Source: an uncultured Bacilli bacterium (GTDB lineage: Bacteria > Bacillota_I > Bacilli_A > RF39 > UBA660). From it: a DNA stretch of 8,859 nucleotides. A program made the translations under genes and the position numbers. The DNA is taken from positions 1 through 8,859 of the forward strand of contig CANQUW010000039.1 in assembly GCA_947627145.1 (NCBI GenBank), in the 5' to 3' direction. Shown piece by piece: positions 1,278 to 3,291 of the stretch. Numbering within the stretch: the stretch's first letter is position 1; the number at the start of each line of letters is the position of its first letter. The notes beneath the pieces were generated by a model. It was not told the origin of the DNA. It saw only the letters and a program-made list of their open reading frames with translations, and made no database searches.

Positions 1278-1907
1278 TTAATTTAATACGATCATCCAAT
1301 AAAGTAATGCTAGAATTAGAAATAAGTATATCATTACAAATGGAAATACAAATAAAGTTACAAAGCCATTTGGTTTAAATTTATCATTTGGTACAAGAGA
1401 ATGTCCATTTGATTTAACTAAACTTTTATTTTCTATTCCTTTGCTTTTATTATTATTTTGATTATTACTTTCATTATCATTTACTTCTTCATTTTTTGAA
1501 GAAGTATTTATAATTGAATAAAATTTTCTAAATTTAGGTAAATTCTTTTTATTATGAGAATAGAAATCTATTACATCATCCATATTTAATTTTGAGTTTT
1601 CTTTCAATTTATCTTTTATTTCTTTATCTTCTGTTTTTTGTAAATATGCACTCATCAATAAAATAAGATATTTATAGCCATCATTTTCTTGCTCTGGCTC
1701 TGGATGTTCTTTAAAACCAATCGTATGATTAAATCCTAATTTTTCATCGTCTCCAATATAAATATTATCTGTTGTGAAATCTCCTATTATAAAGTTCTTA
1801 TTATGATAATTCTTCATTTGTTTTGCTATTTCAGTAAATAATTTTTCTATATCCTCTGGGGTTTTATAATTTTCAAAATTTATACTTACTTTTTTTGAAT
1901 CATTCAT
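1278..1907 (-). CDS. Tail-anchored membrane protein with a kinase C-lobe-like segment, function unknown
   Basis: I do not recognise this 209-residue protein as a named family. Residues 38-51 (NFIIGDFTTDNIYI) resemble a protein-kinase catalytic loop, with Asp43 and Asn48 spaced as in HxDxxxxN, but the usual His and Lys are replaced. Residues 70-90 (PEQENDGYKYLILLMSAYL) recall the kinase PE...D-x-Y-x-x-G helix region. There is no N-lobe: no glycine-rich loop and no AxK lysine. Residues 135-160 are Asn/Ser/Lys-rich and probably disordered. Residues 182-207 form one strongly hydrophobic helix ending only two or three residues before the C-terminus, so the bulk should face the cytoplasm. There is no signal peptide. 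ATG 1907 follows AGGTG at 5 nt. The gene sits between the sigH-like gene and secE with its own promoter (1929-1957). The kinase relationship is inferred from motifs only and may be a degenerate pseudokinase or chance. Confidence 0.8.
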   Translation of the reverse strand: MNDSKKVSINFENYKTPEDIEKLFTEIAKQMKNYHNKNFIIGDFTTDNIYIGDDEKLGFNHTIGFKEHPEPEQENDGYKYLILLMSAYLQKTEDKEIKDKLKENSKLNMDDVIDFYSHNKKNLPKFRKFYSIINTSSKNEEVNDNESNNQNNNKSKGIENKSLVKSNGHSLVPNDKFKPNGFVTLFVFPFVMIYLFLILALLYWMIVLN

Positions 1908-1960: not shown

Positions 1961-2583
1961 TTAATTTATATAAATTTCATCCAAAGATCTTTTTTTCATT
2001 TCAATTCTTATATTTTTTAAATATCTTCCTACTTTATCATAACTGATATCTAAGAGTTTAGCGATTTCTTTATATGAAAAACCATTACAACGAAGTTCAA
2101 ATACAGCACTACAGTCTCTATCTAAATCTAATCTTAATTCGTTTAGTTCTTTGTAATAATCATTATACATTGTTAAATTTAGGGGATCTATCTCTTTTTC
2201 AGATGTTATTATATTTTTATATGGTTGCATAGTTGTTGGTTCACATACTTCGTATGAAAAAGATTTATTTAATACTTCATAACTTTTATTAGTAGTCTTT
2301 CTACAAAATGTTTGAATATTTCTTTTAATACAGGCAGTTACATAAGTACAGAATTTGATATTTTTATCTATTTTGTATTTTTCTATAGCTTTAAATATAG
2401 CATAGGTACCTTCTTGTATTAAATCTTCTAGTTCTATTCCATGATATTTATTTGTATTATAATATTTTTTAGCAAAATCTATTATTATTGGTTGATATTT
2501 TTTAATAATAATTCTCTTGCTTCTTCATTATTTTCATATATCAAATCTAATAATTCATAGTCATTTAGTTCTTTATAATGCAT
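1961..2583 (-). pseudogene. sigH: SigH-like RNA polymerase sigma factor interrupted by a frameshift
   Basis: Frame 0 begins at ATG 2583, just after the rlmB stop, with AGGAG at a short 3-nt spacing. It encodes MHYKELNDYELLDLIYENNE and reaches TAA TAA TAG (2487-2479) after 32 codons. A 1-nt backward shift at the A6 run (2503-2498) joins it to an open frame running without stops to TAA 1961. The restored product is 207 residues, against about 218 for B. subtilis SigH. Region 2 lies at residues 24-100 (2.2: LEDLIQEGTYAIFKAIEKYK; 2.4: TYVTACIKRNIQTF). Region 4 has a helix-turn-helix at 165-195 (GFSYKEIAKLLDISYDKVGR). Position between rlmB and secE also matches sigH. Only codons 2230-1961 (region 4) form a free-standing ORF with an ATG. 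Sequencing error, real decay, polymerase slippage and programmed frameshifting all remain possible. Both halves are well preserved, which argues against an old pseudogene. In SigH lineages the protein directs transition-state, competence or early sporulation genes; the role here is inferred. Confidence 0.8.
2497..2503 (-). other. A AAA AAT heptamer at the sigma-factor frameshift
   Basis: Reading in frame 0, codons 28-29 are AAA AAT preceded by A, giving the heptamer A AAA AAT. This has the X XXY YYZ form needed for tandem -1 slippage. After slipping, translation continues TAT CAA CCA (Tyr-Gln-Pro), exactly where region 2 needs it. A purine-rich stretch AAGAAGCAAGAGAA lies about 8 nt upstream. 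I see no strong downstream stem or pseudoknot. A run of seven A would also repair the frame, so a one-base indel is the main alternative. Confidence 0.5.
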
Positions 2584-2589
2584 ATTCTC

Positions 2590-3291
2590 CTACTTTCTAT
2601 TTCGAACTACTTCATAAATCATTATACCTGCCGCAACTGATGCATTTAGACTATTAGTTGTTCCATACATTGGAATTTTCGCTAGAAAATCACATTTCTT
2701 TTTTACAAGTGGACTCATACCTTTTCCTTCATTTCCTATTATTAAAACCGTCTTACCTTCATAGTTTATATTTTTATAATCAATAGCATTATCCATATCT
2801 GTTCCAATAATCCAGAAATTATTTTGTTTTAATTTGTCAATTGAACTTGCGATATTTGAAACTCTAATGATTTTCATTTTAAAGACTGTTCCAACACTAG
2901 TTTTTATAACGGTTGAATTGACTTCTACTTGTCTATCTTTTGGAATTATTATTGCATCTATTCCTGCTGCTTCACAAGTTCTTATAATAGCACCAAAATT
3001 ATGTGGATCCTCTATATGATCAAGCATAACAATATTTTTGATTTCTTCATCTTCTAGAACTTTATTAAAATCAAAATATCTGTAGTCCTCAATGTCTAAT
3101 ATTATACCTTGATGTAGACCATCAATCAAGTCATCCATACCTTTTTTTGAAAGAATTTTTTGGTTTATATTAGATTTTATGATAAGAGACAATATTTTTT
3201 GGTCATTAAATTGTTCTTGTAAGTAGATTTTTTTTATTTTTATATTATTTTGTAATATTTCTATTGCTACATTTTTTCCATATACTAACAT
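2590..3291 (-). CDS. rlmB: 23S rRNA 2'-O-ribose methyltransferase, RlmB/TrmH (SpoU) family
   Basis: SPOUT-class enzyme that transfers a methyl group from S-adenosylmethionine to a ribose 2'-OH of a guanosine in 23S rRNA. The 233 residues contain an N-terminal substrate-binding domain (about 1-75, starting LVYGKNVAIEIL). The knotted catalytic domain has all three SpoU motifs: motif 1 DHIEDPHNFGAIIRTCEAAG (91-110, Arg104), motif 2 IIGNEGKGM (184-192, Glu188) and motif 3 IPMYGTTNSLNASVAAG (206-222, Asn216). ATG 3291 is served by AGGAGG 6 nt upstream, and both lie inside the end of mrnC, so translation is probably coupled. The stop TAG (2592-2590) overlaps the Shine-Dalgarno of the following sigma gene. 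yacP, which lies between rlmB and sigH in B. subtilis, is missing. The exact target nucleotide cannot be told from sequence. Confidence 0.93.
   Translation of the reverse strand: MLVYGKNVAIEILQNNIKIKKIYLQEQFNDQKILSLIIKSNINQKILSKKGMDDLIDGLHQGIILDIEDYRYFDFNKVLEDEEIKNIVMLDHIEDPHNFGAIIRTCEAAGIDAIIIPKDRQVEVNSTVIKTSVGTVFKMKIIRVSNIASSIDKLKQNNFWIIGTDMDNAIDYKNINYEGKTVLIIGNEGKGMSPLVKKKCDFLAKIPMYGTTNSLNASVAAGIMIYEVVRNRK

What the first reader, a model, noticed from the sequence alone, without database searches (positions are those of the whole stretch)
2479..2583. SigH-like sigma factor split by a -1 frame change at a canonical-looking slippery A AAA AAT
Frame 0 from ATG 2583 gives 32 codons, then three consecutive stops TAA TAA TAG. 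The rest of the sigma factor is intact in the -1 frame, and the junction falls exactly on A AAA AAT (2503-2497). A tandem -1 slip yields ...LLLK(N/K)YQPIIIDFAKK, the expected region 2 sequence, and a normal 207-residue protein. Both halves look fully conserved, which is unusual for a decaying gene. Possibilities are a one-base assembly error, polymerase slippage on A6, phase variation between A6 and A7, or programmed ribosomal frameshifting that throttles a transition-state sigma factor.
Basis: partly seen in the sequence, partly recalled or inferred. Interest (0 to 1): 0.72.

Follow-up and report, generated by a model that had tools for sequence, protein, structure and literature searches.

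The report
Sigma factor with private one-base frameshift
A SigH-like sigma factor gene of an uncultured bacterium is cut in two by a one-base frame change that was not seen in hundreds of related genomes, so it is most likely a sequencing error or a fresh mutation and not a built-in genetic switch.

Summary
On the minus strand ATG 2583 opens 32 codons that end in TAA TAA TAG; the other 180 codons, with sigma-70 regions 2 and 4, are open in the -1 frame, and the switch falls on A AAA AAT (2503-2497). The programmed and phase-variable readings are not supported. The seven closest full-length protein relatives (53-86% identity) are single-frame, 207-209 residues. Of 291 genomes in the closest relative's family, 267 carry the orthologue in one frame across the junction; 2 are cut by contig ends there and 22 lack the whole locus. 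The A run is not conserved, no Shine-Dalgarno-like or hairpin stimulator was found, and nine intact neighbour genes hold 19 in-frame A AAA AAN heptamers. The second half shows no decay (4 private substitutions against 11-14 in three close relatives). This fits a private indel that is very recent or not real. I favour an error in the record over a new null mutation, about 60:40; reads would decide. One result against pure error: two further close relatives are known only as C-terminal fragments, and one of them shows its own, different frame change.

The parts
2587..2591 (-). AGGAG, ribosome-binding site of the sigma gene, overlapping the rlmB stop codon
   Evidence: upstream sequence; rlmB ORF ends at 2590
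2485..2583 (-). Frame-0 part of the sigma gene: 32 codons and stop; first 27 residues identical to P0003
2497..2503 (-). A AAA AAT in frame 0, the place of the frame change
   Evidence: relatives run through here in one frame
2479..2487 (-). Three consecutive stops in frame 0 (TAA TAA TAG)
1961..2503 (-). -1 frame part of the sigma gene: 180 residues and stop, sigma-70 regions 2 and 4, no sign of decay
1961..2230 (-). Only start-to-stop ORF left in the second frame (89 aa, from ATG 2230; lacks region 2)
2590..3291 (-). rlmB, intact, directly upstream; used as the control for presence of the locus
   Evidence: (TIGR00186, 241.5 bits against a cut-off of 160.15)

Best explanation
The locus is an ordinary SigH-like sigma factor gene of an uncultured member of the Bacilli, directly behind rlmB. 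In this one record it carries a private single-base indel in the codons for residues 28-30, which shifts the frame and ends frame-0 translation after 32 codons. The A AAA AAT is what an A-rich stretch looks like after such an indel and is not an evolved signal. I think it most likely that the indel is an error of sequencing or assembly (about 60%) and otherwise a very recent natural null mutation (about 40%). Shown: the break, its absence from the relatives examined, the lack of decay, the lack of recognisable stimulators. Inferred: error versus mutation, and the absence of recoding.
For: 7 of 7 closest full-length protein relatives are single-frame. 267 of 291 family genomes have the orthologue in one frame across the junction, 2 are cut by contig ends, 22 lack the locus. 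Tract not conserved in 33 loci. Window has 4 private substitutions against 11, 12 and 14 in three close relatives, 0 at sites invariant in the other seven sequences against 2, 1 and 1. No SD-like motif, no hairpin better than shuffles. 19 in-frame A AAA AAN heptamers in nine intact genes. A published classification of frame transitions asks for a conserved site in at least five genes for a programmed shift, and expects single cases confirmed by homologues to be sequencing errors (PMC3711429, passages seen).
Against: The rest of the window is clean through 37 A or T runs of six or more in intact genes, 12 of them 7-8 long, so the record is not generally error-prone at homopolymers. Two other C-terminal-only fragments of close relatives exist (P0025, P0026); P0026 starts in the shifted frame, an independent frame change. 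These could mean repeated loss of the gene in this small group. P0024, the window's own fragment, stands for two member sequences, and the second could not be seen. Lack of decay is also what a gene still made by slippage would show.
Confidence: 0.88

Rival explanations
1. Real loss of function with wider reach: the gene is being lost in this small group of species, and the window shows one of several independent breaks.
For: P0026 (77% identity, 87 aa) begins MWTNNYAT where the window's shifted frame reads M*TNNYAT, so its contig has a frame change near codon 120; P0025 (82%, 89 aa) begins at the same internal Met as the window's fragment. The gene evolves faster than most neighbours: 60% identity to L001 against 76-94% for the seven others compared, the uncharacterised gene (34%) excepted. 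One family genome, G132, has an in-frame stop at about codon 70.
Against: Intact copies in P0003, P0004 and P0005, the closest relatives. No excess of substitutions in the window. P0025 and P0026 come from contigs of 682 and 862 bases whose DNA I could not read; a contig end could explain P0025.
Confidence: 0.2
2. Programmed -1 ribosomal frameshifting on A AAA AAT makes the full sigma factor at a low, regulated rate.
For: Correct register of a heptamer of the slippery type; second half constrained; residues 28-30 of the slipped product fit the family.
Against: Not seen in 267 genomes or 7 protein relatives. No SD-like motif in the 30 bases upstream; downstream hairpins matched by 27 of 40 shuffles, and 187 of 200 shuffles fold as well. 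In E. coli AAN codons with a pyrimidine third base are the weaker shifters, and without stimulator motifs reach at most 10 times background (PMC4066793, section 17 read; the value for this heptamer is in a figure I did not see). 19 in-frame A AAA AAN heptamers sit in intact neighbours.
Confidence: 0.05
3. Phase variation by changes in length of the A run.
For: A homopolymer is at the junction; two close genome relatives, L035 and L036, have a run of seven in frame. Reversible genetic control of sigH is known in S. aureus, by duplication (PMC7911514, passages seen).
Against: Run of six only; run not kept in the other 31 of 33 loci nor in P0003, by its Asn. The window has 12 longer runs inside intact genes.
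Confidence: 0.04
4. Transcriptional slippage on the A run restores the frame in part of the mRNA.
For: A homopolymer is at the junction.
Against: Programmed realignment is described for A runs longer than seven (PMC3711429, passage seen); here it is six and not conserved.
Confidence: 0.02

Closest known systems
SigH (Spo0H) family sigma factors of Bacillota
   Same: Sigma-70 regions 2 and 4; directly behind rlmB and upstream of secE-nusG, as in the conserved cassette around sigH of Bacillus and Staphylococcus (recalled); best sequence match among solved structures is a sigma-H factor, 3mzy.
   Different: Far below the curated SigH cut-offs (TIGR02859 44.5 of 294.8 bits; NF006148 45.4 of 208; NF006145 37.2 of 212). 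Frame broken in this record only.
Genes with programmed -1 frameshifting (dnaX, IS3-family transposases; examples recalled)
   Same: An X XXY YYZ heptamer in frame at the junction.
   Different: No conservation and no recognisable stimulator; heptamer of a weaker class.
Singleton frameshifted genes (indel mutation or sequencing error) in GeneTack's sense, PMC3711429
   Same: One case, both parts confirmed by homologues and Pfam, no conserved site.
   Different: Two other C-terminal-only fragments in close relatives, one with its own frame change.

Membership tests
SigH-like sigma factor | Sigma-70 region 2 and region 4 domains | tested here: met
   Sigma70_r2 43.8 bits (cut-off 24), Sigma70_r4_2 29.9 bits (cut-off 25.7); TIGR02937 70.1 of 42.9 bits
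SigH-like sigma factor | Curated SigH equivalog score | tested here: not met
   TIGR02859 44.5 of 294.8 bits; NF006148 45.4 of 208; NF006145 37.2 of 212 (180-residue piece only, without the first 27 residues)
SigH-like sigma factor | Place between rlmB and secE-nusG | tested here: met
   for the window, for L001; one uncharacterised gene lies between sigma and secE; the comparison with Bacillus is recalled
Programmed -1 frameshifting | Slippery heptamer in the right register | tested here: met
   but 19 in-frame A AAA AAN in intact neighbours
Programmed -1 frameshifting | Frame change conserved in relatives | tested here: not met
   0 of 267 family genomes that span the junction, 0 of 7 closest full-length proteins
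Programmed -1 frameshifting | Stimulatory SD-like sequence or downstream structure | tested here: not met
   pseudoknots not tested
Programmed -1 frameshifting | Full-length product observed | not testable with these tools
   needs proteomics or a reporter
Phase variation by slipped-strand mispairing | Long repeat tract kept in relatives | tested here: not met
   run of six here; longest run 2-7 in 33 loci, seven in 2
Phase variation by slipped-strand mispairing | Mixed tract lengths in one population | not testable with these tools
   needs the reads
Programmed transcriptional realignment | A run longer than seven | tested here: not met
   six A; length rule from PMC3711429, passage seen
Old pseudogene | Further lesions or relaxed constraint | tested here: not met
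   no other stop, 4 private substitutions against 11-14
Sequencing or assembly error | Reads disagree with the record | not testable with these tools
   no reads, and no whole genome held for the window

The most novel reading that the evidence does not exclude
In this species, and perhaps in the small group of P0025 and P0026, the SigH-like gene is split by a recently evolved frame change and full-length sigma factor is made only at the low rate of ribosomal slipping on A AAA AAT: a lineage-specific throttle on an alternative sigma factor, with parallel frame changes in sister species.
Probability: 0.04. Interest if true: 0.6.

Novelty: not a real feature. Interest (0 to 1): 0.1.

Why it matters
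If it were programmed, it would be an alternative sigma factor controlled by ribosomal frameshifting; the one search I made for that combination returned a single paper, a review on copper homeostasis (listing only). As it stands the result is mainly a caution: in AT-rich genomes slippery-looking heptamers are common, so a frame break on one says little until relatives are checked.

Tried and rejected
Own-genome search, genus search and file loading failed because no whole genome is held for the window, so neither paralogues nor the rest of this genome could be checked. A first scan of genome contigs with the 180-residue piece alone confirmed no relative; the alignment-based scan gave 34 loci, of which I used the closest. 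The 22 family genomes without an orthologue looked at first like gene loss; RlmB is missing from 22 of 22 of them at E<=1e-30 and present in 25 of 25 control genomes, so the locus as a whole is missing from those assemblies. Matches starting at model position 22-23 in G081 and G209 looked like a break at the same place; reading them showed orthologues with a shorter N terminus in one frame, starting right at the end of rlmB. Of 18 orthologue matches flagged with stops inside, 17 have the stop at the natural end and one, G132, has an internal in-frame stop at about codon 70. Restart of translation at an internal start was rejected: there is none before 2230. Codon-position divergence against L035 and L036 has most changes at third positions in both parts, but the sequences are too diverged, and the first part too short (25 codons), for a dN/dS test. 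Hit P0012 (150 aa, 43% of the query covered, unrelated end) was left out of the alignments. A search on homopolymer frame errors in metagenome assemblies returned one paper, which I did not use. No structure was predicted.

Full report
What is there. The window carries, all on the minus strand and in this order of transcription, a membrane transporter-like protein cut by the window's end, clpC, cysS, mrnC, rlmB, the sigma gene, an uncharacterised gene, secE, nusG and rplK cut by the other end. rlmB, secE, the RNase III domain of mrnC and the Clp ATPase are supported by family matches; the names cysS, nusG, rplK and of the transporter are recalled from their translations. The sigma gene starts at ATG 2583 behind an AGGAG that overlaps the rlmB stop. 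Its first 32 codons end in TAA TAA TAG. The -1 frame is open from 2503 to 1961 and holds sigma-70 regions 2 and 4.

Protein relatives. A search of about 5.8 billion proteins with the 180-residue piece gave 21 hits. The seven closest full-length ones, P0003-P0009 at 53-86% identity, are single proteins of 207-209 residues. The window's frame-0 piece matches them up to residue 27 (27 of 27 identical to P0003) and the -1 piece from residue 28 or 29 on. The break therefore sits in the codons for residues 28-30. K29 and Y30 are invariant in 40 of 40 aligned relatives. P0003 has Asn at residue 28, so the nearest relative does not have an unbroken run of A codons there.

Genome relatives. An alignment-based scan of named genomes found the two closest loci in MAGs called uncultured Bacilli bacterium, isolates 'Lapin-...' (rabbit, by the French word; inference), L001 and L002. 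Gene order is the same as in the window as far as the loci reach. The genus of that genome has three members in the collection: two carry the orthologue intact; the third, G007, shows neither sigma orthologue nor RlmB. From the family 291 genomes were searched; its capped list shows 150 genomes with a match spanning the junction. The other 141 were searched again with a broader 40-row profile: 62 of 70 and 57 of 71 have an orthologue-level match (E<=1.4e-26; the next matches, at 6e-24 and weaker, are paralogues or second fragments). Of these 269 genomes, 267 have a match that spans model position 28 in a single frame, and 2 (G152, G100) are cut there by contig ends. Of 18 such matches flagged with stops, 17 have the stop at the natural end and one (G132) has an internal in-frame stop at about codon 70. 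The remaining 22 genomes lack RlmB as well, 0 of 22 at E<=1e-30, while 25 of 25 control genomes have it, so they say nothing about the gene. In 33 loci read codon by codon, 33 are in frame, with a longest A run of 2 to 7 over residues 24-34.

Is the second half decaying? Over the 180 shared columns, the window has 4 substitutions at sites where its three closest relatives agree, against 11, 12 and 14 for each of these in turn, and none at sites invariant in the other seven sequences, against 2, 1 and 1. Either the protein is still made, or the break is very recent or not real.

Is there a signal? The heptamer A AAA AAT is in the right register, but the nine intact genes of the window hold 19 in-frame A AAA AAN heptamers, 9 of them A AAA AAT, in 2,569 codons. 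No SD-like stimulator lies in the 30 bases upstream, and downstream hairpins are no better than shuffled sequence (27 of 40 single-base shuffles as good; 187 of 200 dinucleotide shuffles). Pseudoknots were not tested. No Rfam family reaches its threshold in the window. In E. coli, AAN codons with a pyrimidine third base are the weaker shifters, and motifs without stimulator reach at most ten times background (PMC4066793, section 17 read, other passages seen; the value for this heptamer is in a figure that I did not see). A large survey of frame transitions asks for a conserved site and at least five genes for a programmed shift, and expects single cases confirmed by homologues to be sequencing errors (PMC3711429, passages seen).

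Error or mutation? The rest of the window is clean through 37 runs of six or more A or T inside intact genes, 12 of them 7-8 long, so a generally error-prone record is unlikely; a single error remains possible. Against pure error, the 89-residue ORF that the break leaves behind has, besides itself (P0024, which stands for two member sequences, the second not seen), two relatives in the protein collection that are also C-terminal only: P0025 (82%, same Met) and P0026 (77%, 87 residues). P0026 begins MWTNNYAT where the window's shifted frame reads M*TNNYAT, so its contig carries a frame change near codon 120, different from the window's. These are contigs of 682 and 862 bases whose DNA I could not read. 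They fit either noisy short contigs or repeated loss of this sigma factor in a small group. The closest RlmB in the collection is 88% identical, so I saw no other record of the same species. I lean to error over mutation about 60:40; this lean rests on the survey's experience with single cases and on the lack of decay, and is a judgement.

What the gene would do. By place and domains it is a SigH-like alternative sigma factor; it fails the curated SigH cut-offs, and the best sequence match among solved structures is a sigma-H factor, 3mzy. Related uncultured orders of Bacilli (RF39, RFN20, ML615J-28) are predicted to mix spore formers and non-spore formers (PMC10868615, passages seen); whether the window belongs to one of them was not tested. 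In S. aureus, sigH is under reversible control by gene duplication, not by frame change (PMC7911514, passages seen). Literature searches on frameshifting or phase variation of sigma factors (listings) showed no title about a sigma factor made by programmed frameshifting.

Verdict. A true reading of the sequence with an ordinary cause. The programmed reading keeps about 4-5%.

Noticed in passing
window 1278-1907 (-): Uncharacterised 209-residue protein between the sigma gene and secE: weak match to Bud32-type kinase models (best E 0.001-0.002, far below cut-off), hydrophobic C terminus, 34-35% identical in L001 and L002 and not found in L004.
   Followed up: partly
window 1961-2583 (-), L001, L002: The sigma gene evolves faster than most neighbours: about 60% identity to L001 against 76-94% for nusG, secE, rlmB, mrnC, cysS, clpC and the transporter.
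   Followed up: partly
P0026 (862-base ENA contig) and P0025 (682-base ENA contig): C-terminal-only fragments of the sigma factor in close relatives; P0026 starts in a shifted frame, an independent frame change near codon 120.
   Followed up: partly
L099 (G132): Orthologous sigma gene with an in-frame TAA at about codon 70 and otherwise intact.
   Followed up: no
L093 (G081), L094 (G209): Orthologues with a naturally shorter N terminus that starts right at the end of rlmB.
   Followed up: no
L095, L096, L102, L112 against L097-L099, L104: rlmB-sigma is kept, but what follows the sigma gene differs: secE in several loci, and elsewhere reading frames that look like topoisomerase I, UvrA, a glycosyltransferase or a YchF-type GTPase (names recalled from the translations).
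   Followed up: no
22 genomes: Sigma gene and rlmB are missing together in 22 of 291 family assemblies, so this locus seems to drop out of MAGs as a block.
   Followed up: partly
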